Shown piece after piece: positions 551-64,000 of a stretch of DNA of 64,000 nt. This DNA comes from Vibrio sp. CDRSL-10 TSBA (GTDB taxonomy: Bacteria > Pseudomonadota > Gammaproteobacteria > Enterobacterales > Vibrionaceae). Location: the NCBI GenBank assembly GCA_039696685.1, contig CP155565.1, forward strand, positions 1,302,001 to 1,366,000. Direction: 5' to 3'. The position numbers and the translations under genes were made by a program. The notes beneath the pieces were generated by a model, which searched no databases, was not told the origin of the DNA, and was given only the letters and a program-made list of their open reading frames with translations. Every line of letters begins with the position of its first letter. The first letter of the stretch is position 1.

Positions 551-1644
551 TACCAATCGCACTAATTTTATGATCTAATATCAGCTTCAATAGGAGCTGA
601 TATGACGACCCCTGACTTCCCAAAACTTATTCGTGAAACATCCGATGCTAGGATGCGTACGAGACTTCTTGCTATATCTCATTTCGTGGATGGAAAAAGC
701 CGCACTCAGATCGCCAAATATTTAAAAGCCAGCCGTACCAGTATCAATAACTGGGTCGCGGCTTATTTAAAGAATGGTGTTGAAGGCTTGGTAGAAAAGC
801 AGCATACAGGCCGTCCTCCACGACTGACTGAAGACCAGCTATCTCAGTTAAAGCTGTACATCACTTCCAATGCGATTAAGCCTGAAGGTGGCAGACTACA
901 GGGGACAGATATTATTGAATTCATCCATGAAGAATTTGGCCTATCGTACAGCTTATCAGGCATCTATAAGATATTGAGAAAGCTTGATTTAGTTTGGATA
1001 ACAACGCGTTCAAAGCACCCAAAGCAATCTGTAGAAGCACAAGAAGCTTTTAAAAAAATTCCCAATAGAAACGATCCTTAAGATCCCAGGACATGTTGCT
1101 TTAAAAGATGTTCAAATCTGGTTTCAAGATGAAGCCAGATTTGGCCAGCGCAACACAACAACCCGAATATGGGCAGAAAAAGGGACTCGTCCCAGAGCGG
1201 TACAACAACAGCAATTTGAGTATGCGTACCTATTTGGAGCGGTGTGCGTTAATACCGGAGAAACTGAAGCTATTGTTGTTCCGATGAGCAACATGGAAGC
1301 AATGAAAGAGCAACTCAGGCTCATTTCTCAATCCACACCCGCAGACAAACATGCTGTCGTCATCATGGATCAAGCCAGTTGGCATCAAAGTTATCTTGCT
1401 GATTCATTCAAGAAACCTGACTGTCATTCATATACCGCCCTATTCACCGGAACTCAACCCAATAGAGCAGGTATGGAGTTGGTTGCGTCAGAACGAAATA
1501 GCCAATAGGTGTTTTGAATGTTACGACGATATTGTCGACAAGCTGTGTAGTGCTTGGAATCGTTTTTGTGCAGACAAAAGCAGAGTCATTTCGCTCTGCT
1601 TTAGAGATTGGACTATATTGACCAGTTAATTAGTGTGATTGGTA
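551..1644 (+). mobile_element. IS630-family insertion sequence, copy 1 (left, full ends)
   Basis: A 1094-bp element bounded by 17-bp terminal inverted repeats, taccaatcgcactaatt at 551-567 and its one-mismatch complement at 1628-1644. It carries a single transposase gene in two overlapping frames. IS630 elements insert at TA and duplicate it; TA is present at both outer edges of the dimer (549-550 and 2724-2725). Copy 1 is nearly identical to copy 2, displaced by 1082 bp. Seen differences include a few substitutions and one extra A at 1412-1416 that breaks the second half of the transposase. Confidence 0.93.
602..1629 (+). CDS. IS630-family transposase, copy 1 (second frame broken by one extra base)
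   Basis: The first frame (602-1081, 159 aa) holds the N-terminal helix-turn-helix region, with SRTQIAKYLKASRTSINNWV and a GRPPRLT linker. The second frame starts after an A7 run near 1054 and holds the DDE catalytic region: Asp in FQDEARFG, Asp in VIMDQASWHQ and Glu in SPELNPIEQVW. In this copy an extra A at 1412-1416 (GAAAC, against GAAC in copy 2) splits the second frame between the second Asp and the Glu. As written this copy cannot make a full catalytic domain. See copy 2 for the intact arrangement. Confidence 0.85.
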
Positions 1645-1683
1645 TAATTTTATGATCTAATATCAGCTTCAATAGGAGCTGAT

Positions 1684-2710
1684 ATGACGACCCCTGACTT
1701 CCCAAAACTTATTCGTGAAACATCCGATGCTAGGATGCGTACGAGACTTCTTGCGATATCTCATTTCGTGGATGGAAAAAGCCGCACTCAGATCGCCAAA
1801 TATTTAAAAGCCAGCCGTACCAGTATCAATAACTGGGTCGCGGCTTATTTAAAGAATGGTGTTGAAGGCTTGGTAGAAAAGCAGCATACAGGCCGTCCTC
1901 CACGACTGACTGAAGACCAGCTATCTCAGTTAAAGCTGTACATCACTTCCAATGCGATTAAGCCTGAAGGTGGCAGACTACAGGGGACAGATATTATTGA
2001 ATTCATCCATGAAGAATTTGGCCTATCGTACAGCTTATCAGGCATCTATAAGATATTGAGAAAACTTGATTTAGTTTGGATAACAACGCGTTCAAAGCAC
2101 CCAAAGCAATCTGCAGAAGCGCAAGAAGCTTTTAAAAAAATTCCCAATAGAAACGATCCTTAAGATCCCAGGACATGTTGCTTTAAAAGATGTTCAAATC
2201 TGGTTTCAAGATGAAGCCAGATTTGGCCAGCGCAACACAACAACCCGAATATGGGCAGAAAAAGGGACTCGTCCCAGAGCGGTACAACAACAGCAATTTG
2301 AGTATGCGTACCTATTTGGAGCGGTGTGCGTTAATACCGGAGAAACTGAAGCTATTGTTGTTCCGATGAGCAACATGGAAGCAATGAAAGAGCAACTCAG
2401 GCTCATTTCTCAATCCACACCCGCAGACAAACATGCTGTCGTCATCATGGATCAAGCCAGTTGGCATCAAAGTTATCTTGCTGATTCATTCAAGAACCTG
2501 ACTGTCATTCATATACCGCCCTATTCACCGGAACTCAACCCAATAGAGCAGGTATGGAGTTGGTTGCGTCAGAACGAAATAGCCAATAGGTGTTTTGAAT
2601 GTTACGACGATATTGTCGACAAGCTGTGTAGTGCTTGGAATCGCTTTTGTGCAGACAAAAGCAGAGTCATTTCGCTCTGCTTTAGAGATTGGACTATATT
2701 GACCAGTTAA
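1684..2710 (+). CDS. IS630-family transposase, copy 2 (orfA 1684-2163 plus +1-frame orfB to 2710)
   Basis: The better preserved transposase. The first frame, 159 aa, carries the helix-turn-helix DNA-binding region. The catalytic part lies in the +1 frame, open from the A7 run near 2136 to 2710, with the DDE residues in FQDEARFG, VIMDQASWHQ and YSPELNPIEQVW. Both copies have the same A7 junction, so it belongs to the element and is unlikely to be a random error. Joining the frames would give a protein of about 342 aa, the usual IS630 size. Some IS630 relatives are reported to join their frames by recoding or slippage. Loss of one A, or a +1 shift, is needed here; that this occurs is inference. 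Confidence 0.85.
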
Positions 2711-2725
2711 TTAGTGTGATTGGTA
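2709..2725. repeat. Right terminal inverted repeat of the IS630 dimer
   Basis: The sequence aattagtgtgattggta is the complement of the left end at 551-567 with one mismatch. An identical copy at 1628-1644 marks the right end of copy 1. Only the outer pair (551-567 and 2709-2725) is complete, so the whole 2.2-kb dimer is the likeliest mobile unit, or copy 1 alone using 551-567 and 1628-1644. Confidence 0.9.
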
Positions 2726-3354
2726 TTACTTGTTGTGACATGACTGACAACTGGTTGCGCAGGTTATCCAGATCCTGACGGTATTGGGCGCGCTGGCGAT
2801 CGGCCAGTTTCTGGTTGGGCTGCGAGCAGCGAGGGAGGGAAGGCGAGCTTGTTGTAGTCAATCAGCACGGCTTGCTGCCACTCGTTTTCGCTGAACGCTT
2901 CATTGACCACGACACTGGCCAGTGAAGCGGAAAGCTGCAGTACATTGGCGGTCAGGTTGGCGACCTGCTGTTCACGCTCACGGTAGTCGGAACGAAAGCG
3001 GGTGTCATCAATCAGCAGCAGTTGCTGGCCTTTACGGACCTGTTCACCTTCACGCACCAGAATTTGTTTGACCAGTCCGCCCTCCAGATTCTGCACCACC
3101 TGAATCTGCGATGAGGGTACGACTTTACCCTGACCGACGGTGACTTTGTCGATTTGCGCCCAGGCAGCCCAGGCCACCGCTATGAACAAAAACAATACCA
3201 TCACCCAAAGCATGATGCGGGCGCTGCTGGGAGTGTTGAGCAGCAGCGCCGCAGTTTGATCATCGACAAAGTCCAGTTCGCCGTCAGCGTTCTGATCTTT
3301 GCCAAACCGGCCCATGGATAACCGTTGCTTAGAGAGGTGCTCGTGATTAGCCAT
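2726..3354 (-). pseudogene. HlyD-family type I secretion membrane-fusion protein, N-terminal part
   Basis: The start half of the interrupted adaptor gene. It has a short cytoplasmic N-terminus, one membrane helix (about residues 47-68, LWVMVLFLFIAVAWAAWA), then the first biotinyl-lipoyl-like motif with NLEGGLVKQILVREGEQV and the beginning of the periplasmic coiled coil. A GTTTC at 2807-2811 carries one extra base. Without it the frame runs on as AQPELADRQRAQYRQDLDNL up to the IS junction. The gene carries two lesions as written: the IS dimer, which is convincing, and the frameshift, which belongs to the window-wide GAAAC pattern. The start Met at 3354 gives the expected N-terminal length for the family. 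Confidence 0.85.
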
Positions 3355-3611
3355 GACTCATGGCGAGATCCTGCGATAGACTGAAACCGTCCCCGGTCTG
3401 GTGGCGACCGGGAGTGGCGCTGAAACTGCCAAGAGTCTCAGACGTGTGGTTAAAGTTTAGACGGTTTCTTGGCGGTTAAGCGGGGAATGAGTCAAGAGTC
3501 GCACTGCAACCATCACAGAGTGTGAAGTGATCGACAAAGGCTTTCGTTTGTCATGGCTTGAGTTATACGGCGTATAGGCGCACAATCGGCAAAAAATAAC
3601 GAGGAGTAGAA

Positions 3612-4247
3612 ATGGAACTTTCAGACATTCGCCGTGAATACATTCAAGGTGGTTTGCGCCGCAAAGATTTGCTGGCCGATCCGGTGCAACAGTTTAACTT
3701 ATGGCTGCAGCAGGCGATCGACGCGAAGTTAACCGATCCGACCGCGATGACCGTTGCCACAGTGGATGAACAGGGTCAGCCATTTCAACGTATTGTGCTG
3801 CTGAAAAATGTCGAAACTGACGGTTTCGTGTTTTATACCAACCTGGCCAGCCGCAAAGCGCAACATATCCAGCACAATAACAAAATCAGCCTGCATTTCC
3901 CGTGGCACCCGCTTGAGCGTCAGGTCCACATCACAGGTACGGCAGAAAAACTGAGCGCGCTGGAAAACATGAAGTATTTTACGTCACGTCCGAAAGAGAG
4001 CCAGATTGCCGCGATCGCCAGTCATCAGAGCAGCCGTATTTCTGCCCGTGGCGTATTGGAAGGTAAGTACCTTGAGCTGAAACAGAAGTTTGCCAAAGGT
4101 GAGATCCCGGTACCGAGTTTCTGGGGTGGTTTCCGTATTCGTCCGCACAGCATTGAGTTCTGGCAGGGAGGTGAACATCGTCTGCACGATCGTTTCATTT
4201 ACACCCGTCAGGAGAGTGGCTGGGATGTGGATCGTCTCGCGCCGTAA
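3612..4247 (+). CDS. pdxH: Pyridoxine/pyridoxamine 5'-phosphate oxidase
   Basis: A complete 211-aa FMN enzyme that oxidises pyridoxine or pyridoxamine 5'-phosphate to pyridoxal 5'-phosphate, the last step of B6 synthesis and salvage in the cytosol. Family hallmarks are visible: [17 protein letters not shown] with the FMN-contacting segment, [10 protein letters not shown], and the C-terminal signature FWGGFRIRP...[12 protein letters not shown] ending in RLAP. Length matches the family (about 210-220 aa). A ribosome site (cgagga) lies just before the ATG. It converges on vqmA with a 42-base gap. The frame is intact. Confidence 0.97.
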
Positions 4248-4289
4248 CCGACACTCTTTTGTTGGTCATCCCGTTTCACACACGCCGCT

Positions 4290-5007
4290 TTAAGCGGCGT
4301 GTTCGTTTTTCAGCACCACGGAAAGCTGGGTTTTGAGCAGGGTTTGTGGGATAACCGAGCCAAAACCGAGGTCCAGTGCCCGGTCGAGCAGGCTCTCTTT
4401 ACTGGGGACGCCGAATTTGGTGCGCAGGCGTGCCTCGTAACCTTCAACGGTTTTGATTGAAATTCCCATCACGCGCGCAATGTGTTGCGGTTTTTTGCCG
4501 TACAGCAGCAGAAACAGAGTTTCCGATTCACGGGTGGTGAGCTTGGGCAGTTGCAATTCATCATGATTGGCACTTTTAAGCGCTGAACTTAAGCCTGTCG
4601 CGCGACACACCCAGTGTCCGACTTCGAGAATGGCGGTATCCGTCAGTTTCCTGGCCGTAAAAAATGGTGCCGCGAACTTTACCCTGCGCATCGCGCCACG
4701 GACTTTTGGTAAAGATGTGAGCATGCCAGCGTCCATCCGGGTAGGGGTGGATGTCGAGAACTTTCAGTGAGCGACCGGTTGTGATCACGTAGCGATCCTG
4801 CTCCTGAAAATCAGCGGCGCAGGCAACGGTCGGACTTGGCATATCAAAATCGGTCAGACCAACACAGTGCTGCATGCTCTCCACGCCGATCAGCGCAGAA
4901 TAGGCCTCATTGGCATAAACAAAAACAGAGTTCAGATCTTTACAGCCCCAGTAACCGGGTAACTGTTGAAACAGTGATAACTGTTCTGCGGTGAGTGGAT
5001 TTGACAC
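4290..5007 (-). CDS. vqmA: VqmA, PAS/LuxR-type quorum-sensing receptor and transcription activator
   Basis: A cytoplasmic receptor-activator. In Vibrio, VqmA binds the autoinducer DPO through its PAS domain and activates the vqmR sRNA gene. Here the N-terminus (MSNPLTAEQLSLFQQLPGYW...) is a PAS domain to about residue 125, including LTDFDMPSPTVACAADFQEQ. The C-terminus is a LuxR helix-turn-helix with LTTRESETLFLLLYGKKPQH and GISIKTVEGYEARLRTKFG. Length about 239 aa. The identification rests on this sequence plus the vqmR-like RNA and palindromic VqmA box directly upstream. One extra base at 4646-4650 (GTTTC) splits the frame between PAS and HTH; removing it gives YGQELTDTAILEVGHW, as expected for the family. 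The shift is treated as an artefact. Confidence 0.87.
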
Positions 5008-5096
5008 AACATAATTCCCTTGTATGCAACCGGGTTATGATACCAAGGTGGTGGGGTAAAGTAAGTACTCAGTGCGGGTTTACGGGGTGAAAACAT

Positions 5097-5125
5097 AAAA
5101 AAAGCCAGCCTGAAGACGGGCTGGC
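5097..5125 (-). terminator. Rho-independent terminator of vqmR
   Basis: On the minus strand, GCCAGCC-CGTCTTCA-GGCTGGC is followed by T7. The stem is seven perfect G/C-rich pairs. The T tract lies on the vqmR side, so it terminates transcription coming from the VqmA box. Confidence 0.9.
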
Positions 5126-5243
5126 ACAAATACAAGAAACATATCTTGTCGACGTGTAGAAGAGGTTCCATGAATTCAGCGAGGGTCTGCCGAAAACACA
5201 GAGGCATCAATAAGATACCCGGCGTCAAGGGACCCTTAACGCC
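5097..5243 (-). ncRNA. vqmR: VqmR regulatory small RNA
   Basis: An untranslated stretch of about 147 nt immediately upstream of vqmA and on the same strand. In Vibrio, VqmR is an Hfq-dependent sRNA of about 140 nt, induced by VqmA-DPO, that represses targets such as biofilm regulators. Evidence seen here is a VqmA-type palindrome at 5279-5296, a -10 box TATAGT at 5251-5256 (minus strand), and a strong intrinsic terminator at 5097-5125 ending in seven T. No credible ORF is contained. The 5' end is inferred from the -10 position. Read-through past the terminator would reach vqmA, 90 bases downstream. Confidence 0.82.
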
Positions 5244-5250
5244 TGCGACA

Positions 5251-5256
5251 ACTATA
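5251..5256 (-). promoter_or_regulatory. -10 element of the vqmR promoter
   Basis: TATAGT on the minus strand, about 23 bases downstream of the VqmA palindrome. No good -35 hexamer is present, as expected for an activator-dependent promoter whose activator sits just upstream. Confidence 0.6.
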
Positions 5257-5278
5257 TTAAAGCTGCCAGCAACGCAAA

Positions 5279-5296
5279 AGGGGGGATTTCCCCCCT
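5279..5296. promoter_or_regulatory. VqmA operator palindrome
   Basis: AGGGGGGATTTCCCCCCT is a near-perfect dyad and matches the VqmA-binding palindrome I recall from V. cholerae vqmR promoter studies. It sits 36 bp upstream of the inferred vqmR start. It also lies 28 bases past the stop of the FGE-like gene and could serve as that gene's terminator as well (a T4 run follows on the plus side, an A4 run on the other). Confidence 0.8.
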
Positions 5297-5323
5297 TTTA
5301 GCTAATTTACGCAAATAGTTGCG

Positions 5324-7181
5324 TTACAATTCACGTAAAACCCGAAAGCCAACGTAATTGGCGGCCGCTGAAGGGGCAATAAACAGCTGACTGTCCGCCT
5401 TAGCCATCTCCGGCGAAAAGCTCCAGGCGCCGCCTTTTGCTAAGCCGCGTGTATCTGTGGTCCATTGCCAGACGTTACCGACGACATCGTAGAGACCCAG
5501 TGGGTTAGCATCAAAAGCGCCGACCGGAGAAGTGCTCTTGTTTGACCATGGAGTGCCGCCCCAGCCAGTATTGGCTCTTCCGCTGCCAAAACGTTCACCC
5601 CACCAGTACGCGGCTTTACTGCCGGCGCGGGCGGCCGCTTCCCATTCATCTTCACTTGGCAGGCGATAATGGAAGCCGGTTTGTTGTGACAGCCATTGAG
5701 TATACGCTTTGGCGTCGTTCTGGCTGATACAGACCACCGGGGATTGCCTTGACTGCTTAAATCCTGGGTTGCGCCAGTAACTGCCCGGCATCGGCGCGAC
5801 TTCCGCCTTGTCGACCGCAATACAGAGTTTTTGCAATTCGGCATCAGTCTGGTAGCCAGTCTGGTTAACGAAGGTTTCAAACTGAGCCACGGTTACTGGT
5901 GTGGCGCTGACTGCGAAAGCATGATCAAGGTGAACCTGACGCGATGCATTCTCACCCAGCAGGTATTCGCCGCTTAGTAATGTGACCATTTGCGGCGCTT
6001 TGACATCGCCTTTCAGCGAGTCGGCAAAAGTATGTCCCGCTTTAAGCGGGTTGGCCTGCTCGCGCAGCACAGCACGTAGCGTATGGTCTGAGTTGATGCT
6101 CAGTTCCTGATGGAAGGCGCGGTAGCCCTCTTTGGCCACCGTAATCATGTGACTGCCGACCGGCAGCATAATATCGACCGGTGTGCTGCCGTAGCTGACG
6201 CCATCCACTGAAACGGAATCCTGGTACTGGTTCGAGCGGATCAGCAGGTTTACCCATGCGACTTCTTTCTGTGGTTGCGGCTGTGCGCTATCTCCGGGTG
6301 CAAAACAGTATTGCGATTCGACGTCCAGCAGTTTACACGGGGTATTTTCCGCCGGACGGGCATTCAGCTGTGCGGCGATCACGGTTTTGAATCGGCTGCC
6401 GTCAAAGAAACCCGGCATCTTTGACTGTATGGCTCAGTACGTGAATATTGAGCGCGACATCCGCCAGATGCTGTTTGACCTGCTTAGATTCTGTGGTTTG
6501 ATCGATCAGCCAGGCCTGATACTGGGTGACTGCTTTTTGCAGCGCCAGATCCGTGGTCTGTTTGGCACACTGGGCCAGGGTCATGTCTGCCTGGCAGGCG
6601 TTGGTGAAGCTGACCGTCTGCTCGCCTTCACGTTTGAGTTCGTTTCTCAGCTGTTCAACCCGGGCACGTACTTTATCTTCATCAAGCCGGGCGATTTTCT
6701 GCTCAATCAACTGCTGTGCGGCTTTGGCTTCGCTCAGCGCGGATTGCTGTTCCTGAAGTTTCTGCTCTGCTTGCAGACGTGTTTGTTGGTTCTGTTTCAC
6801 CTCTGCCCAGGCGGACTGATAGGCATTCTGGGCCGCAGAGATATCCAGATCCGGTTCATTGGTCATCGCCTGATACTGCTTCGCCAGTGTCTCTTTGGCC
6901 TGCTGCAGCGCTTTGTCGAGCTTGGCAGCCCGCTGCGTCAGGCGGTTGACCTCACTGAGCTGATTGTCTGCAGCCGTTTGCTGAGCCTGAGTGCTCTTTT
7001 TGGCCTCTCGCAATGCGCTGTGCTGGCTGAACAGGGCATCGTCGATGCTGACAACGCTGGAGCTGTTGGCGACGTCGGATGCATTGACAACGTCGGATGC
7101 CGAAGCTTGTTCCGCCATCAAAGGTGTTGCGAGCATGTATGGCGAAAGTGCAAATAACAGAGCGGGTAAACCTTGTCGCAT
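5324..7181 (-). CDS. Secreted coiled-coil / PEGA / formylglycine-enzyme-like (SUMF1) domain protein
   Basis: About 619 aa with a signal peptide (MRQGLPALLFALSPYMLATPLMA). A long Gln/Ala/Glu-rich coiled coil spans about residues 50-190, then a PEGA domain (VDGVSYGSTPVDIMLPVG), then a C-terminal SUMF1/EgtB-type fold with LLSGEYLLG, YRLPSEDEWEAAARAG, GLYDVVGNVWQWT and GFRVLREL. True formylglycine-generating enzymes use a pair of cysteines near the C-terminus. The matching stretch here, RGLAKGGAWSFSPEMAKADS, has none, so sulfatase-activating chemistry is unlikely. One extra base at 6407-6411 (GAAAC) splits coiled coil from PEGA; the corrected reading is KDAGFFDGSRFKTV. It is paralogous to the next gene over its first 350 residues. 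The role is unknown, probably in the periplasm. Confidence 0.82.
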
Positions 7182-7349
7182 GAGTATCTACTTCAGTTAA
7201 AATTGAACAAATCCTGACGCTATTCTAAATGCAAACGCCATTCTGTCATTAGCTATCTTTCAGTAACTTGATGACAAAATGGCGTTATAGCTACATGTCG
7301 TTATAGCTACAGGCGGTAATGGCGCAGCCAGGGCAGTCAGTCCGTTTTA

Positions 7350-8453
7350 TCAGCTGTCTTTATTGGGTCTGAGTTTAACCCACACCGTGTCATTACCGTT
7401 GACGGTGATCACGCGGTTGTAACTTTCGAAACCGTCTTTGGATACCGTCACCTGATGGCGACCAGCCGGCAGGACGATTTCAACCGGCGTGCTGCCATAG
7501 TTGATGCCATTGATGGTAACGGAATCATTGTATTGATCTGAGCGCACCGTGACGTTGGCCCATGCCTTGTCCTGCTTGCTGCTTTTGCTCTCAGCGGCAC
7601 CCTGCAGGCAGTAACGGCTGGAAACATTGAGCATTTTACACGCTGCGACCGCTTCCGGCTTGGCCTGCAGCTGTGCCTGCATCTGAGTAAAGTACTCGCT
7701 GTTGCCTTCAAATCCGGCACGCTGAATCTGGCTGTCCTGAACGTGAATATTCAGTTCGACACCACTGAGATTTTGCTTCGCGATCACCGACTCGCTCAGG
7801 CTGTCGAGCAGCTGGGCGCGGAAAGTTTTAACCGCTTTTTGTTTGGTCAGGTGCAGGCCCTGGCTGGAACATTCGCCCAGTGTCATCGTGGTGGAACAGG
7901 TGGTTTTATAGCTGGTTTCCACGACAGCACTTTCGCGCAGTTCGGCTTCAAGGCGTTTTACCCGTGCCTCGATCTTGCTCTCTTCGAGGTTGGTGTATTC
8001 GGTTTTCAGACGCGCCTGTTTCTGCTTAAGCTGTGAAAGGCGCATTTCGCTTTCGGCGATGGTCTGTTGGTTGGTCAGCTGTTCTGACTGATTCTGTTTG
8101 ACCGCAGCCCAGGCGTCCTGATACTGCTTCTGGAAGGTAACCAGATCGGTCTCCGGGTCTTCCAGCATACGGCTGTACTGTTTGTCCAGAGCCGACTTCG
8201 CGCGGTTACGTTTGGCATCCAACTCGTCGCCATCACGCTTGAGGCGGGCTTGATCGTTCTTTAGCTGTTGAAGCGTCGAACTTTCAGTGTCGAACTCAGA
8301 TGCGATAGCATCAAGTTCGTTCTGTTTTGTACTGATTTTTTCATCGATGGCGGTCACAGGATCGACCTGTGTAACTTCATCCGCGTACACCGATGCAGAT
8401 ACCCAAACTGGGCTTAGCGCAAGCAGTAGCGCTGGGAGGCGATGTTTGATCAT
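7350..8453 (-). CDS. Secreted coiled-coil protein with C-terminal PEGA domain
   Basis: 367 aa, intact. Start chosen at MIKHRLPALLLALSPVWVSA because agggacct precedes it; an upstream in-frame Met at 8468 has no such site. After the signal peptide comes a long heptad-rich region (about residues 30-190) and a conserved Cys pair region (TTCSTTMTLGECSSQ). A PEGA domain (INGINYGSTPVEIVLPAGRH) closes the protein, which lacks the SUMF1 domain of its paralogue downstream. The shared order coiled coil, LNIHV motif, CK-LLDV/CKMLNV motif and PEGA shows a tandem duplication, with one copy gaining or losing the C-terminal fold. The 168-base gap between them allows co-transcription. Function not known; a periplasmic structural or scaffold role is inferred. 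Confidence 0.8.
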   Translation of the reverse strand: MIKHRLPALLLALSPVWVSASVYADEVTQVDPVTAIDEKISTKQNELDAIASEFDTESSTLQQLKNDQARLKRDGDELDAKRNRAKSALDKQYSRMLEDPETDLVTFQKQYQDAWAAVKQNQSEQLTNQQTIAESEMRLSQLKQKQARLKTEYTNLEESKIEARVKRLEAELRESAVVETSYKTTCSTTMTLGECSSQGLHLTKQKAVKTFRAQLLDSLSESVIAKQNLSGVELNIHVQDSQIQRAGFEGNSEYFTQMQAQLQAKPEAVAACKMLNVSSRYCLQGAAESKSSKQDKAWANVTVRSDQYNDSVTINGINYGSTPVEIVLPAGRHQVTVSKDGFESYNRVITVNGNDTVWVKLRPNKDS

Positions 8454-8883
8454 AGGTCCCTGCAACATTTATATGAATCCACTGCGAGCAGTGGGAAAGA
8501 CAAACTTTTGACAGCAGTATTAACTGGCTTAATACCCTGGCTTTGGTCATGCAAATTGCCAGCTCTCTGGCGAAAAAGTCACACTCATCTGACATTAGGT
8601 CGCTGATTTTGTGAATCTTATAACTCTGCAAACTCCATTTTGAGCAGATTATCGAAATATGCAAGCACCGATTTCCGATCTGGTTGACCGTTTTCCTGAT
8701 TGAACACACATTGACCGTAATTTATGTGCACTTGATCATTGTTCCGGTCGTGCTACAAACCACACGCCCGCTTTACTGACAAATCAAAATATGCATTTGA
8801 TTGTTTATTGGTGCGCCGGCGCAGCACTGATTGTCGCTTATGATAGAATTGTAATAAAATGCAGGTCTGTTTCGTCGGGTAGA
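8454..8883. other. Divergent intergenic region upstream of the PEGA protein and the AraC regulator
   Basis: No convincing gene. An AT-rich dyad AATCAAA-(7)-TTTGATT at 8782-8802 could be an operator for the AraC regulator. The long plus-strand extension of the AraC frame into this region has no ribosome site and is not believed. Confidence 0.4.
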
Positions 8884-9714: not shown

Positions 9715-9750
9715 TCACTACAAAACTCCAGTTTTAATGAGAATTATTCT

Positions 9751-53925: not shown

Positions 53926-53945
53926 TGTCTGGCGACCAGAGGCGC

Positions 53946-54688: not shown

Positions 54689-54695
54689 AAGCAGT

Positions 54696-55531: not shown

Positions 55532-57566
55532 ATGCGAATTCATTCAATTCGGTTGAAGATGATGATACCCATCTTAATTCTGGCGGTGCTGGTATTGGCG
55601 GCGGTCGGCTTTATGCAGATCATCACCAAAATAGAAGAACGTGCGATGGATAAGCAGGCTAAGTCTTATTTTGAAGCGATAGCCACTGTGTTGAATGCTG
55701 ACCGGGATATTTATCAGGCGCGGCTGGCTCAGGCGGAAATGCTATCCAATTATGGCAATCGTGCCGAGCAGCAAAAAGTGTTTGATGAGAATGCGCAACA
55801 AGTGTTTGACCGCTTTCAGCTTTTTCGCAACTTACTTAAAGATGAGCCGCAATTAACAGCCCCTTTCAGCAATTTTGAATCCTTGTATCAGACCTGGCTG
55901 GCAAGCAGCCAAAGCCTCAACCAGATGTTTACCACCAAGCAGACTCTGGTTGCTCAAATGGAGTCCATCGATCAAGACTTTTACTCATTACGCAATTTAC
56001 TCGATGTGGCTGAAAAAGAGCTCAGAGCGCACGCAGTTTCAACGGATGGTGCTGTCGTTGACCATGAGCTGATGAAGCGCTATCTGGAGGCCGTTGCTGA
56101 AGTGCTTAATGCTGACCGTGATCTTTATCAGGCGAGACTGGCTCAGCAGAAAGCGCTGACCAACATCGGAGATCAGGCGCAAAACCGTGAAGAATTTGAG
56201 CGGAATGCGTTAGAAGCAATGGGGCGGGTACAATCTTACATGACATTGATGTCCAATGAGCCCGATTATGTCAGGCCGTATGCCCGGTTTAACGAGATTT
56301 TTGCTGGCTGGCTTAAACGCAGTGAAGCTCTGTTTGACTCGAAAGTCTTGGCGTTATCGCCGGGGCATCAGGATATCCTGAGTCAGAGTGATGAGAGTTT
56401 TGCTGCCATTAGGGAGTTACTCGACAAGGGTGGTGAGGCTGTGCGTGATCATGCGCGTTTAATGGAACAGCAAACTGCTCAGGAAGTGGCGCAGTATCAG
56501 AAACTGGCTTTGATCGTAGTGGCGATTGGTTTTGTGATAGCGTTCGGGATTGGTTATTACATGCCTAAGCGCATCACCGAAAACGTCAACAGCGTGTCAC
56601 GGCGGATCAAAGAGATCTCTGAAGGGGACGGCGATCTGACCGCGCGGATCAATTCGCAATCCAAAGACGAACTGGGCGATCTGTCACGGGAATTCGATCA
56701 GTTTGTTACCAAGCTGCAAGGGATCATGCGCATTATTCAGGAAAAAAGCGCGGCTGTGGGGGACTCGACCCATGAGCTGGAAAAAGTCGCTGATACAGTG
56801 AATCAGATTACCCCGGTGTTGGTTGACTCCAGTGATTCGATTGTCAGTGCGGCGAGCGAGATGTCGGCGTCTAATGAGCAGGTGGCGAATGTGGCGTCTG
56901 AGACGTCCAATGAATCAACCAATGCTGCCGATCATATTCAGCAGGGGCGGGGCGTGATCAGTTCATCGCATAAAAGTATTGATGAGCTGGTGCGTAATAT
57001 CGACGTAACCATGAATAAAGCCCAGGATCTGGAGAACAATTCAGTATCGATTTCATCGGTACTGGAAGTGATTCGTGGTATTGCTGAGCAAACCAATCTG
57101 CTCGCTCTCAATGCTGCGATTGAAGCCGCACGTGCCGGTGAATACGGCCGGGGCTTTGCGGTGGTGGCGGATGAAGTTTCGCGCCCTGGCAACGCAAACC
57201 GGTGAGAGCACCAACAAGATTGAAGAGATGATCAGCCAGCTGACACACAGCGTTAATGAGGCTTTTACCAGCATTAAAATGAGTAAGGAAAATGCCAACC
57301 AGACCGTCGATAGCTTCAACCAGGTTGTTGAAGTCTTTGATGCACTGAGCCGGTCGATGAACAATGTACGGGAATTGTCGGAGCAGACTGCGCTGGCAAC
57401 TCAGGAGCAGGCTACGGTATCGAATGACATCAACAAGAACATGATCGCAATGAAAGACCAGACCGATGGGGTTGATCAGGCGTCGAAACAGATTCATCGC
57501 CAGTTTAGTGCATTATCGAATTTGTACCGTGAACTGGATGAACAGGTGTCGAAATTCCGAGTGTAA
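55532..57566 (+). CDS. Methyl-accepting chemotaxis protein with duplicated helical sensor
   Basis: About 678 aa. N-terminal helix ([20 protein letters not shown]), a large periplasmic helical sensor made of two copies of one module (about 45-175 and 180-310), each with (A/V)LNADRD(I/L)YQARLAQ, a second helix ([20 protein letters not shown]), HAMP, and the signalling hairpin ([20 protein letters not shown]). The start at 55532 has aaagggg upstream; the longer frame from 55397 is not used. One extra base at 57176-57180 (GTTTC) breaks the hairpin; corrected: [20 protein letters not shown]. The ligand is unknown. Confidence 0.92.
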
Positions 57567-57608
57567 ACAGCATTTCGAGTGTAAACAGAAAACAACTTAG
57601 CCTATAAA

Positions 57609-57644
57609 AACGCCCGGACGCAAAACATAAGTCCGGGCGTTGTT
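57609..57644. terminator. Terminator between the chemoreceptor and psiE
   Basis: AACGCCCGGAC and GTCCGGGCGTT, 11 perfect pairs with an 11-base loop; it serves the two convergent genes. Confidence 0.88.
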
Positions 57645-57669
57645 GTCTCTTGTTCACGATAACGGGATA

Positions 57670-58149
57670 TCAGGATGAACGTTTGTCCGAATTAGGTGGT
57701 GTCACTTCGCTGTCCGGTTTATCAAAGTAGGCGGCGAAACCACTGCGGGTCGGTTTATACGGCCAGTAATGATGACCCACTCGGATCACCAGGGTTGCCA
57801 GCGCCAGAATCAACGCAGCCAGAGACAGCCAGACAATAAATACCCCATCAATCTCTTTCATCCCCAGAGTGATGTAACGGGCAATAGCCATGATCGCGAT
57901 ATAGATAGGATAGCGAACCGGTATTTTTCCGTGCGAGACGAACTGGTGCACCATAGTGAGCACTTCCAGATAGATAAACATCAGCAGAATATCGGTCAAC
58001 AGCACCGCCTGGGCAGTAAAGATATGCTTAAATTCATTGGCGATGGCGAATAACGTCGCCAGTGTTATCGCGACCAGTAATACGGCCTCGATAATATGGT
58101 AAACCTTCAGAAACAGTTGGGTGAATTTTTTGGATAGTGACGATTCCAT
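57670..58149 (-). CDS. psiE: PsiE-family phosphate-starvation-inducible membrane protein
   Basis: 159 aa, intact, with four hydrophobic helices. The stretch FIYLEVLTMVHQFVSHGKIP followed by RYPIYIAIMAIARYI is typical of the PsiE family. Expression in relatives rises on phosphate limitation; function is not established. No Pho box was recognised upstream. Confidence 0.88.
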   Translation of the reverse strand: MESSLSKKFTQLFLKVYHIIEAVLLVAITLATLFAIANEFKHIFTAQAVLLTDILLMFIYLEVLTMVHQFVSHGKIPVRYPIYIAIMAIARYITLGMKEIDGVFIVWLSLAALILALATLVIRVGHHYWPYKPTRSGFAAYFDKPDSEVTPPNSDKRSS

Positions 58150-58305
58150 TGCTTTACATCCATATCATTAACATTAATGCCATAGTAAGAGGTCTGGGTT
58201 GGATTGGCGAGATTTATTGATAATTCAGCCGATTGATGATGCTTTGGCCTGAGCAGACTAGCGAACGGATATTGCAGCTCAGTGACTGTGCCGGTTTTTC
58301 TTTTC

Positions 58306-58342
58306 CAGTGGATGGCTATTTTCATCAGTGGATGGCTATTTT
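58306..58342. repeat. Tandem 20-bp duplication
   Basis: CAGTGGATGGCTATTTTCAT at 58306-58325 is followed directly by a second copy from 58326 that diverges after 17 bases. It lies in the otherwise gene-free gap 58150-58476 upstream of psiE and the small membrane gene. Confidence 0.8.
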
Positions 58343-58476
58343 CTCCGTGGATAAAATGGCAGCAGTTAGTAAATCTAATTTTGCATAGTTTCAAATTTAA
58401 ATATTACTGTAAATCAAAAAATAGCCGCTAGAACAGGAGTAGGTTGGATGGGATTGGTTTATTTGAGGGAGTAAAG

Positions 58477-58746
58477 ATGACCACATTCAAAGTATTTCTC
58501 AGAGACATGTTGGGTTTAGTTTTGATTCTTTCTGCGGTGCTGGCATTGTTTAGTCTGTTGTTGGATCTGACCGCGCTGTTTGCCTATCTTCATCATGATT
58601 CAGGCCATGCTTCACTGCTGTTGCATGAGTCTTATTATCTGTTGGTGTTTTTTATTCCGCCCTATTTCATCGGCAAATACATCAACCGGGCCGAGGTGGT
58701 GCAAGCGGTGGAAGATTTTCTGCTGATGAAAAGTAAGCAGTCATAA
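58477..58746 (+). CDS. Small inner-membrane protein
   Basis: 89 aa with two hydrophobic helices (LGLVLILSAVLALFSLLLDL and SYYLLVFFIPPYFIGKYI) and a His-rich loop between them (HHDSGHASLLLH). The start at 58477 has gagggag upstream; the upstream extension to 58444 is not used. No recognised family. Divergent from psiE. Confidence 0.75.
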   Translation: MTTFKVFLRDMLGLVLILSAVLALFSLLLDLTALFAYLHHDSGHASLLLHESYYLLVFFIPPYFIGKYINRAEVVQAVEDFLLMKSKQS

Positions 58747-58768
58747 TACCTCTCCTGCCGCGGACAAT

Positions 58769-58798
58769 ATGACCTTTGCTGTCGGGAGCAAAGGTCAT
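58769..58798. terminator. Terminator before nadE (convergent)
   Basis: ATGACCTTTGCT and AGCAAAGGTCAT, 12 perfect pairs around a 6-base loop, between convergent genes. No T run on either side, so efficiency is uncertain. Confidence 0.7.
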
Positions 58799-58810
58799 CT
58801 CCAGAGGGCT

Positions 58811-60920
58811 TTATAGCCCGGGCAGATCTAACCGCAAATACTGGTACTGACCGGATTCAAGGTAGGCCAACTCTTCCTGATAGCCAGAACTGAGCAGAGG
58901 AAAACGCTTGTAGGTTTTCGGATCCAGGCTGTTGGCTTCAATATGAAACCCCGGTGCCTGTCTGTCGCGTTTCCACTGGTTACGAAACAGTAACTTGAAA
59001 AACTTCACGGTGTAATCAGCCATCAGCGATTTGTCTATCGCGGAAAATTCTTCGGTCATCGTTTCAAAAGTATCACGGGGCGGCATCCCGGCCTCGAGGG
59101 TGAGAAATACCATGCGATCCAATACATCAAACGGCATTAAGTCGTCCTCATCGCGCTGCTCCCCCGGACGAAGCTCAGCGGTCGGGCGCTGATTATTAAT
59201 GTAGGACAGGGCACTGAGCTTCATGGTTTGACCATCCTGAGAGCAGAAACCGTGACGCTCAAGCCACAACAGTAACTTGAGAATACGCGTCTTGGTGACG
59301 CCGCAGATGGGCGCCAGCACGCCGGATGAATCGCCATCCATGGTGCAGTAACCGACCGCGCCTTCAGACATATTGCTGGTGGTGAGCAGCAGCTTGTTTT
59401 CGAGGTTGGCGATAAACCAGATGCTCGGAGAACGCACCCGGGCCTGAATATTTTGCAGGGCGATATCATGTTCCTGCCAGTTGAGATCGAGCGCAGTGGC
59501 TTTGGCCACCATGGCTTGGTAGTTATCAACCGCTGCACTGATATCCAGGCTGAGAAACTTTGCGCCAAAAGATTGTGCGACTTTTTGCGCCGCTTCGCGC
59601 GTAACCGGTCCGCTGTTCGCGCTGGCCTGGTAAGCGGTGGTGAGCATATTGGCCATGATGGCGCGCGCGGTTTTCAGTACTACTTGCTGGCAATCTGCGC
59701 CCGTTGACTGCTTGTCAAATTCGCTGATGCGCTGGCTGGTGAGAAATTTACTCAGATGTGCTGGCAACGTACATTGGCTGCCTGCTGCGGTTTTAGCGAT
59801 GCGTTTCTCTTAGTTCAAATACCACGGAACAGTACACACTGCTGGCGACCAGAGCGGAATCGGCGCCGCCGCTGAGCGACAAGGCGTAACCGTCGGTGGC
59901 GGTTTTTTTCAGCCAGTCACGCAGGCCAAGGGCGATGGCACGCAACGCTTCTTCATGTTCCTCATGTTCGCTCTCCTCCCAGGGGTGGTTCAAGGGCATC
60001 GGCGTCAGTTTGTGCATCAATTCGCTGTCGTTTAATCCCACCTCAATGACCTGCTCGGAATCAAAATCATGCACCTCAAAGTAGCGCTGACTGTTACTGA
60101 TCTGGCCGATACGGCTGCGTGACAGATCGACATCGGCACAGACCACTTCTACGTCACTCATGTGCAGTCGCTCTCCTTTGGCCACCAGAGCTCCGTCGAC
60201 AGCGATCATGGCACCGGCATCATAGATAGCCCGACCTGATTCGCAGCCGGACAGATTCGACAGTACGTAGCAAGCGGAGTAGACGCGGCTGGACTCTTCA
60301 ACCAGACGTTTACGGGTTCGAAACTTACCGATCGCGAAGTGACTGGCGCTGGGGTTGGCGATGACATCGACGCCCTGGTTAAAAAAGCGCTCTGAAGTGC
60401 GGTTGGCAACCCACGCATCTTCACAGATTTCAAACCCGACTTTTACCCCGTTGATTTGGTAAACCGGGTTGCCAATCGGGGTGGGTGTTTGCATCCCGTC
60501 TAGCTGCACGGCGCTGTTTTTACTGCCGGTCCAGGGCGTGAACCAGCGCTGCTCATAGTGCAGGCCGTTGGCCGCCAGATTGCGTTTTAACGACATACCG
60601 TGAATGCCTTTGCGGGTCACCAGGGCGACCGCGTTATAAATGCGGTTGTTGATCATAACAGGCAGGCCGACGGAGACCGCCATACTGCGCGGGATGAAAC
60701 GTGCCAGATCGCCGACACTTTTGAGGGCACGCCGGGCGACATGCGGGCTGTGGAAAAAATCTTCACAGCCGTAACCGGATATCGACAGTTCAGGTGTGAT
60801 CAGCAGCGTCGCACCGCTCTGGTGGGCGAGTTCAATTGCTCGTTTTATGTTGGCCAGATTACCACTCCAGTCCATTGGAGTTTGGTTGAGAGAACAGGAA
60901 CTGATGCGCAGTGTGGTCAT
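58811..60920 (-). CDS. nadE: Glutamine-dependent NAD+ synthetase
   Basis: About 703 aa two-domain enzyme that amidates nicotinic acid adenine dinucleotide, using ammonia from glutamine. N-terminal nitrilase-type glutaminase: catalytic Glu in LLITPELSISGYG, Lys in SLKRNLAANGLHYE and Cys in VGFEICEDAW. C-terminal synthetase: PP-loop SLSGGADSALVA and LTTSNMSEGAVGYCTMDGDS. One extra base at 59803-59807 (GTTTC on plus) splits the synthetase domain just after the PP-loop; corrected: VVFELRERIAKTAAGSQCTL. The start MTTLRISSC at 60920 has aaagga upstream. Length matches the long bacterial type. Confidence 0.93.
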
Positions 60921-61148
60921 AGTGAATCCTTTCTTGTGTCGCAATAAGGGCTTAGCGATGCTTTACCTGATTAATTGTATATTATTTGCACGCTTCATGG
61001 GCGCCTATTCAGGCTCATCCTGAATTCTCGCCTTTCCCCCCGATTTAGTGGCTAAGCTGCCCGGACGATCATAGTTCGTTGCATAGCGAAGTGTTTGTTT
61101 TTGAGAGTCGCTATATTCAGCTCTGTCATAATATGAAGAGGATGCAAC

Positions 61149-61460
61149 ATGATCGCGGTTCTTTTTGAAGCGCAGGCAATGCCTGAGCAGCAACAGCGTT
61201 ACTTTGAGGTGGCAGCACAGCTCAAACCTTTATTACAAGATGTTGAGGGCTTTATTTCGATCGAACGATTCAGATGTACCAGTAACCCGGATAAGTTTAT
61301 TTCGTTGTCCTGGTGGCAAAATGAACAGGCCATACTGGACTGGAAACAAAACAGTGCGCATCAGCAGGCGCAGCATGAAGGCAAGGTAAGCATATTCAGC
61401 CATTACACGATACGGATTCTGACGCTGAGCAGAGAGTACGCTTGGCAACCGCAGGAGTAA
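61149..61460 (+). CDS. ABM-domain (antibiotic biosynthesis monooxygenase-like) protein
   Basis: 103 aa, intact. Dimeric ferredoxin-like fold: FEVAAQLKPLLQDVEGFISI followed by KFISLSWWQNEQAILDWKQN and a final His/Tyr strand (FSHYTIRILT). Members range from haem-degrading and quinone monooxygenases to unknown enzymes. Start 61149 with gaggatgcaac upstream. Six bases before the next gene's start, so one operon. Confidence 0.85.
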   Translation: MIAVLFEAQAMPEQQQRYFEVAAQLKPLLQDVEGFISIERFRCTSNPDKFISLSWWQNEQAILDWKQNSAHQQAQHEGKVSIFSHYTIRILTLSREYAWQPQE

Positions 61461-61465
61461 TCACT

Positions 61466-61849
61466 ATGTATGATATTCATATTATTTTGGCTGATGTGCC
61501 CGGGGAACTTGCTCGTATGGGGGAAATTCTCGGTGAAAATGGCATCGGACTTGAGGGAGGCGGCGTTTTTTCTTCCCAGACGGGAAGCCATGCCCACTTT
61601 CTGGTCGAAGAGGGCGAAACGGGCCAGAGCTGTCCTGGAGAATCATGGCTTTATGGTGGTTGATGTCATCAAGCCCCTGATACGCAGACTGCGTCAGGAA
61701 CGGCCGGGTCAGCGCTGCTGACCTTTCTGGAGCAGCAGCGCTGGATAGAAAGAGTGCCCGGATATCGTGAAGTGGTGATAAGCGCCAGAGGCCGTGCAGC
61801 CTTGGTACAGCAATTTGACGTTAGTTTCGATGCCGAGAGCCAACGCTGA
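61466..61849 (+). CDS. ACT-like domain protein (two frameshifts as written)
   Basis: About 127 aa after correction. The N-terminus (YDIHIILADVPGELARMGEI, then LGENGIGLEGGGVF) reads as an ACT ligand-binding domain with the DVPGEL turn. Two breaks: one extra A at 61616-61620 (GAAAC; corrected EEGERARAVLENHGFMVVDV), and near 61705 a GGGG run that seems to have lost a G (corrected RQERPGSALLTFLEQQRWIE). It would end SFDAESQR at 61849. Two lesions in 130 codons leave real decay possible. Coupled with the ABM gene upstream. Function unknown. Confidence 0.65.
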
Positions 61850-61858
61850 CCTTGCTTG

Positions 61859-62167
61859 TCAGTTACCGAGTAAAGGGCGCATGAAGCTGCGTTCATAGCT
61901 CAGTACGCAATCTGTCTGTTCGGCATACTCAAAAGCGGCTTGGCAGTCAGGATCGGTCACGGAGTCGTGACGATATTGTTCATAGGCGGCTAAGGACGAA
62001 AATGAGAACAGCGCCAGAGTAATATTGTTGGCGCCCTCGGCCGGCAGAAAGTAGCCATGGTGCGTGCCACCAAACTTCTCCATCAGCGGAATCCACATCC
62101 GCGCATAACGTTCAAATTCAGCGATTTTTTTCGGGTCGATAACGTATCTGACGTGACAGGTGATCAC
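61859..62167 (-). CDS. NIPSNAP-family protein
   Basis: 102 aa, intact. The GTG at 62167 is chosen because ggaggcac precedes it; the frame's extension to 62248 lacks a site. Ferredoxin-like dimer fold: ITCHVRYVIDPKKIAEFERY, IPLMEKFGGTHHGYFLPAEG, and FSSLAAYEQYRHDS. The family has no firm biochemical role. Convergent with the ABM/ACT pair. Confidence 0.88.
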   Translation of the reverse strand: MITCHVRYVIDPKKIAEFERYARMWIPLMEKFGGTHHGYFLPAEGANNITLALFSFSSLAAYEQYRHDSVTDPDCQAAFEYAEQTDCVLSYERSFMRPLLGN

Positions 62168-62334
62168 TGTGCCTCCCTGATAAGTGATTAGGAGCTTATC
62201 ATCATAAGTTTGGGCGGCGGGTCGAAAAACCAAGCCGCGCCAGGTCAAGGATAAGTGTGTGTTCCGCTTAGTTTCCGCGCTTCGTTTCTTATTTTGGTTT
62301 ACTTTGGCTTAGTTCCGCGTCGTTTTCACTGCAG

Positions 62335-62733
62335 CTAACGGATCAACCCTTGTTCAAGTAATTCAGGGAAGACGTAAGATTTGAAAATGGTCGAGATATT
62401 GGCTTGAGCGACATTGGTGCTGTTAACCCACTTTATTTCGGCGATTTCTGCACTGGCTTTTATCTCGCCCTGATAACGATGAACCGTAAACACGCTCATT
62501 TCCAGTTCTATCTGATCATGGCCGGATGCGTTGGCGGTGTAGACGTTATAAAACGCAATATCTGCTTCAGTCAGGGTAATACCAATTTCTTCATTGAGCT
62601 CGCGGATCAGCGCTTGCTGAGCCGATTCTCCTGCTTCTGGTTTGCCACCGGGAGCAAAAAAGACGTCTTTGCCTTTGGAGCGAACGACCAGCAGAGCGCC
62701 GTTCTGAATGATGATACCAGCTGATTTTTTCAT
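62335..62733 (-). CDS. Nudix hydrolase
   Basis: 132 aa, intact. A full Nudix box, G-x5-E-x7-REUxEExGU, is present from the GG of PGGKPEAGES through IRELNEEIG. Nudix enzymes cleave nucleoside diphosphates linked to another group; the substrate cannot be told from sequence. The 167-base gap to the NIPSNAP gene holds only a degenerate GTGTGT motif near 62255. Confidence 0.93.
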   Translation of the reverse strand: MKKSAGIIIQNGALLVVRSKGKDVFFAPGGKPEAGESAQQALIRELNEEIGITLTEADIAFYNVYTANASGHDQIELEMSVFTVHRYQGEIKASAEIAEIKWVNSTNVAQANISTIFKSYVFPELLEQGLIR

Positions 62734-62790
62734 GTGTCCTCATGGTTCAAATGTGTGGATGACGATTACCGCCCATCGGAAAGGGATAAA

Positions 62791-62818
62791 AAAACACCGC
62801 TTCAGTGAAGCGGTGTTT
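62791..62818. terminator. Terminator between the Nudix and cytochrome genes
   Basis: AAACACCGCTTCA-G-TGAAGCGGTGTTT, flanked by an A-rich tract on the left, so it ends the cytochrome transcript on the minus strand. Confidence 0.85.
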
Positions 62819-62825
62819 GATAAGG

Positions 62826-64000
62826 TTACTTGGCTTTACGACGTCTGCGCAGCCACAGCAGTGCGATCACGACCACTACAGCGCCGACGCCCATGCCCAC
62901 TCGGGACAGCATCAGCAGTGGTGATGTCTCGCCACCGGCGCGCAGAGTTTTGACCCGCTCAGTGCTGATGGTGACATCACTCTGGCCAATCTCTGCCATC
63001 AGATAATTGGTCACCGCAGCGACTTGAGCATCAGTCATCTCGGATTCAAAACCCAGCATGCCCTGATCTTTCTCTGGCCACACTCCTTCCAGAATCACCA
63101 TCGCCACGTTATCGGCGGTTGGTTTGTTGAGAATCGGATGACCTTGCAAAGGCGGTAAACCGTTCAGGCCACGGCCTGATAAGTTATGGCACGATGCACA
63201 GTTATTGACGTACAGGGTTTCGCCTTCACTCATGTTGGCCAGGGCCTGCGGTGTGTCATCACCTTCGACCTTGGTCAGAGTTGCAGGCTGAGCGGCCGCA
63301 GCGTGATACTCGCCGCCTTCCGGCAGCAGGTAAGTGGCAATGGCTGACAGATCATCAGACGTCATGCGTGAGAAGCTTTTATCAATCGCTTCCAGCATCG
63401 GACCTGCCGCGGTGGCACCATTACCTGCATGGCCGGTGGCCAGATACTGAGTCAGCATTTGGTGGGTCCAGTACGGCTTGCCTTGCAACGCTTCAGCGGT
63501 GATATCCGGTGCATACCAGGTGCCCAGTGACGTGCCCTGCAGGTATTTGTCCTGCTGCTCTGCCATCAGGAAGTTACGCGGAGTGTGACAGGTGCTACAG
63601 TGTGTCAGACCCTGCACCAGATAAGCGCCGCGGTTCCACTCGTCAGATTGAGTGCTATCCGGCTGGTATGCTTGGTCGTCCAAAAACAGCAGGTTCCACG
63701 CCGCCATGCTAAAGCGCAGGTTGAACGGGAAACGGCAGTTTGGTCTCTGCCGGTTTCACATCCACTGGCTCTACGCCGTGCATAAAGTACGCGTACAGAG
63801 CAGAGACATCTTCGTCGGTCAGTTTCGCGTAAGCAGTATAAGGCATTGCCGGGTAAAGCTGGCTGCCATCGCCGCGTACGCCTTCACGCAGGGCCGCTGC
63901 AAATTGCTCTTCGCTGTAGTTACCGATACCGGCCGTTTTAGACGGGGTAATGTTGGTACTGTAAATGGTGCCCAGCGGGCTGCCGATAGCATGGCCGCCG
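62826..64000 (-). CDS. Multihaem membrane-anchored cytochrome c (dehydrogenase electron-transfer subunit type), partial
   Basis: Runs off the right edge; at least 391 aa in view. Two c-type haem sites are visible, CSTCH (LVQGLTHCSTCHTPRNF) and CASCH (LYVNNCASCHNLSGRG), and the part cut off probably holds a first site, as in three-haem subunits of gluconate, alcohol or aldehyde dehydrogenases. GGHAIGSPLGTIYSTNITPS and DVSALYAYFMHGVEPV are typical of that group. It ends in a membrane helix and basic tail (GVGAVVVVIALLWLRRRRKAK). One extra base at 63729-63733 (GAAAC on plus) breaks the frame; corrected: ETKLPFPFNLRFSMAAWNLL. It passes electrons from a periplasmic dehydrogenase to the respiratory chain; the partner lies outside. 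Confidence 0.87.

What the first reader, a model, noticed from the sequence alone, without database searches (positions are those of the whole stretch)
1412..63733. Twenty-seven frameshifts share one signature: GAAC read as GAAAC (GTTC as GTTTC)
Twenty-six otherwise well-conserved genes in this window are split by +1 shifts. In every case but two, removing one A (or T) from a GAAAC/GTTTC at the break restores the family sequence, for example DDEDRENEGD in ribB, QGSAT in the GntP permease, TREL in rhlE and IRKVLQRLE in the GntR regulator. Positions of the G or first base: 1412, 2807, 4646, 6407, 10455, 12435, 15062, 17149, 18597, 22076, 23948, 26102, 28810, 30335, 32951, 35826, 37319, 40758, 43519, 45333, 51318, 53285, 55013, 57176, 59803, 61616, 63729. 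Random homopolymer errors would not all have G before and C after the A run. Many other GAAC sites are unaltered (for example 3614 in pdxH, and 63723 a few bases from an altered one), so only a fraction is hit. Most likely this is a systematic sequencing, base-calling or data-processing error, possibly linked to a modified base; a biological mutator with this specificity would be new.
Basis: partly seen in the sequence, partly recalled or inferred. Interest (0 to 1): 0.85.

Follow-up and report, generated by a model that had tools for sequence, protein, structure and literature searches.

The report
Sulfur-modified DNA misread during genome sequencing
The many broken genes in this Vibrio genome are almost certainly not real: the bacterium carries genes that put sulfur into the DNA backbone at GAAC, and the sequencing or assembly appears to have read some of those sites with one base too many.

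Summary
All 27 listed positions carry GAAAC/GTTTC; motif-blind tests confirm a +1 break at 22 of 27 and contradict none. It is genome-wide: in 860 kb, 86 of 105 +1 frame changes lie within 20 nt of the motif (11.8 expected), and of nine X-AAA-Y contexts only G-AAA-C is hit (76 of 516; others about 2% or less). The insertions cannot be real: rpoB and rpoC are split the same way. GAAC/GTTC is the known, partly used Dnd phosphorothioate motif, and this genome encodes dndBCDE and dptFGH. Altered sites, 5.4% of scored coding GAAC, show the flanking bases published for Salmonella phosphorothioate sites. A second dnd-bearing Vibrio, G033, shares the signature; the other loci tested do not. Best reading: a long-read consensus error at phosphorothioated GAAC/GTTC, leaving a partial map of the sulfur epigenome in the assembly. 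No reads or chemistry were available.

The parts
1035..1626 (+). IS630-family transposase, 3' half in two frames; copies of the element in this assembly differ by indels almost only at GAAC/GAAAC sites
2764..3354 (-). HlyD-family type I secretion adaptor piece; +1 break near its end (13 raw breaks)
5324..7181 (-). gene in two frames (first listed piece matches a PvdO/SenA-type profile); +1 break (49 raw breaks)
9987..13108 (+). putA-type proline dehydrogenase / glutamate semialdehyde dehydrogenase in three pieces that match consecutive parts of one profile (3-148, 154-801, 801-1022)
13871..15395 (+). sodium/proline symporter PutP; +1 break (90 raw breaks)
16041..17931 (+). methyl-accepting chemotaxis protein: sensor/HAMP part and signalling part in two frames
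18500..19138 (+). ribB, 3,4-dihydroxy-2-butanone-4-phosphate synthase, downstream of an FMN riboswitch; +1 break (10 raw breaks)
32636..33896 (+). DEAD-box helicase in two pieces that match consecutive parts of the DEAD domain (1-56, 62-166)
37193..38473 (-). GntP-family permease; +1 break (3 raw breaks)
39901..41158 (-). SBD_N/NBD_C gene in two pieces that match successive parts of the SBD_N domain (1-130, 119-229)
58814..60962 (-). NAD synthase with amidohydrolase part, two pieces that match consecutive parts of one profile (3-303, 305-538)
1..64000 (.). 390 GAAC/GTTC and 196 GAAAC/GTTTC sites; 27 of the latter listed as breaks

Best explanation
The host is a Vibrio (close hits are nearly all Vibrio) that encodes a Dnd DNA-phosphorothioation system and its Dpt restriction partner. 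Dnd replaces a non-bridging oxygen by sulfur between G and A, and between G and T, in a minority of GAAC/GTTC sites. When native DNA was read on a long-read platform (inferred), the sulfur-bearing linkage disturbed the reading so that the A2 (T2) run was reported as A3 (T3). At sites modified in enough molecules the error survived the consensus, and no short-read correction removed it (inferred). Shown here: the signature, its restriction to G-AAA-C, its genome-wide spread, the splitting of essential genes, the dnd/dpt genes and the flank match. Inferred: that phosphorothioate is present in this strain, that it causes the extra base, and the platform.
For: The scan without homologues finds GAAAC/GTTTC as the pentamer with the highest (smoothed) +1 shift rate in 460 kb and again in 860 kb. 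Nine X-AAA-Y contexts were tabulated: GAAAC 76 of 516 shifted, others about 2% or less. Essential rpoB and rpoC each lie in two frames whose overlap contains GAAAC or GTTTC. DndC scores 551 bits against a cut-off of 290; DndB, DndE, DptF, DptG and DptH score above their cut-offs and DndD is present in two pieces (PADLOC agrees). DndC over the cut-off occurs in only 29 of 227 Vibrio genomes. Published: GAAC/GTTC is the phosphorothioate motif in Salmonella; 12% of 32795 sites modified by EcoWI-seq (PMC9521924); 3.9 to 4.4% of motifs seen by nanopore errors (PMC9069010). Here 76 of 1403 scored coding sites, 5.4%, are altered. Published flank preference is C at -2, A/C at -1, T/G at +1, G at +2. 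Here, altered against unaltered coding GAAC: -1 A/C 53/76 v 541/1327 (p 1e-6), +1 T/G 48/76 v 669/1327 (p 0.034), -2 C 36/76 v 396/1327 (p 0.002), +2 G 44/76 v 544/1327 (p 0.004). Within 30 nt only offsets -1 and -2 pass Bonferroni, and the most altered 6-mer is altered in 17 of 64, so no bipartite or strict methylase motif is seen. G033, a second dnd-bearing Vibrio, has 17 of 22 +1 events near the motif, 2.6 expected. In 18 alignments of one IS630 element within the same assembly, 9 of 10 indels are GAAC/GAAAC differences (some alignments show the same copy).
Against: No reads, kinetics, signal or chemistry seen; platform unknown. Of 26 Vibrio genomes tested out of the 29 with DndC, only 2 show the signature; seven of the 24 others have a DndC only about 33-36% identical to this one, and each was sampled in 13-40 kb only. 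G033 was picked because its own DndC was split, so it does not independently test the link to dnd. In G033 (13 sites) only the -1 flank preference is significant; -2 C, +1 T/G and +2 G are not. Six E. coli dnd-bearing records show no event near the motif. In E. coli B7A per-site modification exceeds 30% at only 360 sites and tops out near 35% (PMC6459556), too low to win a consensus unless occupancy is higher here. Of the -1 A/C preference only A is enriched in this genome, C is lower than at unaltered sites (11/76 v 319/1327); in G033 it is C (8 of 13). An in-vitro study found no flank effect (PMC4515589). The scan called no +1 event at the splits of dndD and dptH themselves.
Confidence: 0.85

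Rival explanations
1. A different modification of GAAC/GTTC, such as adenine methylation by a methylase with a degenerate or partial motif, disturbs the reading.
For: The signature alone does not name the chemistry; modification-mediated nanopore errors at lineage-specific pentamers are published (PMC10687267, passages).
Against: Methylases normally modify nearly every motif site (established knowledge), but only 5.4% are altered, no 6-mer exceeds 27% (a few 8-mers with two to four altered sites reach 40-50%), and no second half-motif is seen within 30 nt. The dnd genes and the published phosphorothioate flank bases fit without it. The genome was not searched for methylases.
Confidence: 0.07
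2. A base-caller or polishing bias for this sequence context, unrelated to any modification.
For: There is a soft sequence preference around altered sites, as a context error would have.
Against: The other eight X-AAA-Y contexts are barely touched. Near-identical IS630 copies are called differently. 80 named Vibrio loci (1.63 Mb), 25 other dnd-bearing loci and 34 loci without DndC over the cut-off show 0 +1 events near the motif; their platforms are unknown.
Confidence: 0.05
3. Real +1 mutations: a mutator, for example from Dnd nicking, inserts one base at GAAC.
For: IS630 copies differ at the site, as real mutations would.
Against: rpoB and rpoC are split and only one rpoB was found; such a cell could not live. 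An excess across conserved genes without other frame changes is not expected.
Confidence: 0.01
4. A data-processing or deliberate alteration of the deposited sequence, not a sequencing effect.
For: The change is very uniform.
Against: Flank preferences match a published biochemical preference and a second genome has the same signature.
Confidence: 0.02

Closest known systems
Dnd/Dpt phosphorothioation system with GAAC/GTTC motif (E. coli B7A, Salmonella Cerro 87)
   Same: dndBCDE with convergent dptFGH, as in the E. coli records seen; the same 4-base motif; only a small part of sites affected; similar flank bases
   Different: Phosphorothioate not measured here; evidence is an assembly error pattern; dndA/iscS not looked for; occupancy would have to be higher than reported for B7A
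Modification-mediated systematic errors in nanopore assemblies (Modpolish, PMC10687267, passages)
   Same: Errors confined to a lineage-specific motif that survive consensus
   Different: Those were mismatches at GCAGC/GCTGG; here one-base insertions at a backbone-modification motif
Nanopore or SMRT detection of phosphorothioate (PMC9069010, PMC9521924, passages)
   Same: Error or kinetic signature at GAAC/GTTC
   Different: Those work from reads (nanopore against modification-free DNA, SMRT from kinetics); here the trace is fixed in a finished assembly

Membership tests
Dnd phosphorothioation system | DndC sulfurtransferase | tested here: met
   551 bits with neighbours in the frame, 550.3 as one protein; cut-off 290.4
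Dnd phosphorothioation system | DndD and DndE in an operon with DndC | tested here: met
   DndE 87 bits over 71.85; DndD in two pieces, 246.7 (over) and 234.7 (just under) against 245.85
Dnd phosphorothioation system | DndB regulator | tested here: met
   TIGR03233 481 bits, cut-off 328; PADLOC DndB
Dnd phosphorothioation system | DndA or IscS sulfur donor | not tested
   not searched
Dpt/DndFGH restriction | DptF, DptG, DptH | tested here: met
   475.7, 312.2 and 1284.5 bits, all over cut-off; the C-terminal part of DptH is a separate open frame
Phosphorothioate at GAAC/GTTC | Partial use of the motif | tested here: met
   76 of 1403 scored coding sites altered, taking altered sites as a stand-in for modified ones
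Phosphorothioate at GAAC/GTTC | Flank preference C M [GAAC] K G | tested here: met
   this genome: all four directions, p 1e-6 to 0.034; within M only A is enriched. G033, 13 sites: only -1 M significant
Phosphorothioate at GAAC/GTTC | d(GpsA)/d(GpsT) in the DNA | not testable with these tools
   needs LC-MS/MS
Modification-mediated assembly error | Errors confined to one motif and absent in relatives | tested here: met
Modification-mediated assembly error | Error vanishes in amplified DNA | not testable with these tools
   no reads
Modification-mediated assembly error | Genes are intact in the cell | tested here: inconclusive
   only indirect: rpoB and rpoC are split, which a living cell could not bear

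The most novel reading that the evidence does not exclude
The extra bases are a one-base-resolution record of a phosphorothioate epigenome frozen in a public assembly. Such records exist in other long-read-only assemblies of dnd-bearing bacteria (here also G033) and can be read without raw data. They imply that in this Vibrio roughly one GAAC/GTTC in twenty is modified in most molecules, unlike the low occupancy reported for E. coli B7A, with a flank preference shared between Salmonella and Vibrio.
Probability: 0.5. Interest if true: 0.7.

Novelty: new variant of a known kind. Interest (0 to 1): 0.6.

Why it matters
Many genes of this assembly look broken, RNA polymerase genes among them, although they are very probably intact; anyone counting pseudogenes, markers or gene loss from it would be misled. 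More usefully, the error may give a way to recover where a sulfur modification sits from sequence alone, and to screen public assemblies for it, which makes questions about the conservation of phosphorothioate site choice testable without new experiments. In the listings and passages seen I found no report of one-base insertions at GAAC left in finished assemblies; the library lacks most subscription papers, and the 2014 phosphorothioate mapping paper cited there was not held.

Tried and rejected
DNA alignment to relatives for exact indel placement recovered 2 of 27, with scattered gap placement and thin coverage; replaced by tblastn frame breaks and a codon-frame scan. Residual +1 events away from GAAAC (19 of 105): nine lie 20-36 nt from a motif site; the ten farther ones were looked at, no k-mer stood out strongly, and by eye about seven of ten hold a ribosome-binding site and start codon, so look like gene junctions. 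Real mutation: rejected through rpoB/rpoC. Type I or other methylase motif: no distant half-motif. General poor assembly: -1 events are 22 in 860 kb, against 5 in 160 kb for G051+G055; four other Vibrio genomes (G094, G147, G002, G086) have mainly -1 breaks and none near GAAAC. Looking for more cases in E. coli: six of 204 genomes with a dndCDE match were viewed, with 6 +1 events, none near the motif; RefSeq may screen out assemblies with many frameshifts (recalled), so this is weak evidence. Looking in the order: 19 of 394 genomes have DptH, only this genome with a shortened frame (1453 aa; the others 1689-1741).
Full report
What was checked. The window is bases 1302001-1366000 of contig 1 of a two-contig, 4.9 Mb genome. 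The 80 relatives kept for one of its proteins are nearly all Vibrio; the nearest genomes in the genus scored 80-81% DNA identity over 5.9 kb (51 genomes left unscored there were scored on a shorter query, best 77%). All 27 listed positions carry GAAAC or GTTTC.

Are the breaks real features of the sequence? A tblastn test that knows nothing of the motif, with 2407 ORFs from other Vibrio loci, gave 436 frame breaks, 427 of them +1; clusters lie within 30 nt of 15 of 27 listed sites. A stricter version (at least 3 supporting groups) gave 11 clusters in the window, 10 of them +1 (or -2) and 8 within 12 nt of GAAAC/GTTTC; the same test gave 2 of 2 in genome G033, and 0 of 38 clusters in the other 59 loci tested, 34 without and 25 with DndC over its cut-off. 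A codon-frame scan without homologues confirmed 20 of 27 at its loose setting (6 of 27 at the strict one) and contradicted none. Together 22 of 27 are confirmed.

How wide is it? In 460 kb of this genome the scan found 62 +1 events, 50 near the motif, 6.8 expected. After adding 400 kb it found 105, 86 near, 11.8 expected; at least one +1 event was found in 35 of 41 stretches. Of all pentamers GAAAC/GTTTC had the highest smoothed +1 rate. Among X-AAA-Y contexts GAAAC was shifted in 76 of 516, the others in about 2% or less. Runs of two, four or five A stayed at or under about 3%, apart from two small cells, T-AAAA-T 4 of 59 and T-AAAAA-C 2 of 20. -1 events stayed low: 22 in 860 kb, 5 near the motif, 2.3 expected.

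Is it in the cell? rpoB was found once, in two frames. In the surrounding 16 kb rpoB and rpoC each consist of two open pieces matching consecutive parts of the same profile, with one GAAAC or GTTTC in each overlap. A bacterium cannot live without these proteins (established knowledge), so the extra bases are errors of sequencing or assembly. A further internal control is an IS630-family element: 18 alignments of its copies (some are the same copy seen in overlapping loci; near full-length ones 99.3% or more identical) show ten indels, eight in the A run at position 1412, one at another GGAAC/GGAAAC, one elsewhere. Copies that agree over about a kilobase are thus called differently at this motif.

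What causes it? The idea that GAAC/GTTC is the Dnd phosphorothioate motif was recalled and written down in the same turn as the first search for DndC, which found it. The cluster holds dndB, dndC, dndD in two pieces and dndE on one strand, and on the other dptF, dptG and dptH, the last also split; the scan called no +1 event at these two splits, so their kind is not established. In passages read of PMC9069010, nanopore errors mark GAAC/GTTC phosphorothioate sites in Salmonella, 3.9-4.4% of motifs in the wild type. In passages read of PMC9521924, 12% of 32795 sites are modified, with C at -2, A/C at -1, T/G at +1 and G at +2 over-represented, and SMRT kinetics call 3473 sites. Here the altered share of scored coding sites is 5.4% (76 of 1403), and all four flank preferences recur against unaltered coding GAAC and against in-frame GAAAC (first 44 sites). 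Offsets -1 and -2 pass Bonferroni over 60 positions; nothing farther out does, and +1 and +2 do not in that test. Within the -1 preference A is enriched and C is not.

Other genomes. 29 of 227 Vibrio genomes have DndC over the cut-off; loci from 26 of them, this genome included, were examined (G048, G060 and G110 were not fetched). Seven of the 24 others besides G033 have a distant DndC, about 33-36% identical to this one, and may differ in motif. Besides this genome only G033 shows the signature: 17 of 22 +1 events near the motif in 420 kb, 2.6 expected. G033 was chosen because its DndC came out in pieces; the split lies beside a GAAAC/GTTTC site, and its dndB, dndD, dndE, dptG and dptH were found. 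Its 13 altered sites share only the -1 preference significantly (12 of 13). Twenty-five further dnd-bearing loci (492 kb) had 0 +1 events; 26 loci without DndC over the cut-off (512 kb) had 3, none near; G051+G055 (160 kb) had 0. Eighty named Vibrio loci (1.63 Mb) had 1, not near; six E. coli dnd loci had 6, none near. So dnd genes are not sufficient; an uncorrected long-read assembly is presumably needed, which I could not check.

Weak points. Phosphorothioate was not measured. Passages of PMC6459556 report that about 60% of modified sites in E. coli B7A are under 5% and the highest near 35%, which would not normally win a consensus. Either occupancy is higher in this Vibrio, or the consensus step favours the longer run. 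PMC8053081 (passages) also stresses heterogeneity between molecules, and PMC4515589 (passages) found no flank effect in vitro. PMC10687267 (passages) shows that modifications unknown to the base-caller leave motif-confined errors in nanopore assemblies, there as mismatches.

Verdict. The general phenomenon is known; this form, a fixed one-base insertion that maps a backbone modification in a finished assembly, was not found in the searches made.

Noticed in passing
window 5094-5246 (-): VqmR small RNA of Vibrio (Rfam RF02834, 154 bits).
   Followed up: no
window 18228-18367 (+): FMN riboswitch (RF00050) upstream of ribB.
   Followed up: no
window about 561-2726 (+): Two tandem copies of an IS630-family element; further copies elsewhere in the genome, some tandem.
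   Followed up: partly
L091 (G000:C2:1196001-1216000): dndD and dptH, genes of the modification and restriction system itself, are split in this assembly; the scan did not call the kind of break.
   Followed up: partly
G094, G147, G002, G086 loci L241-L244: Mainly -1 breaks (6, 4, 3 and 3) not near GAAAC: another kind of assembly error.
   Followed up: no
E. coli genome collection: 204 of 5426 complete E. coli genomes match the dndCDE query, all places on chromosomes.
   Followed up: partly
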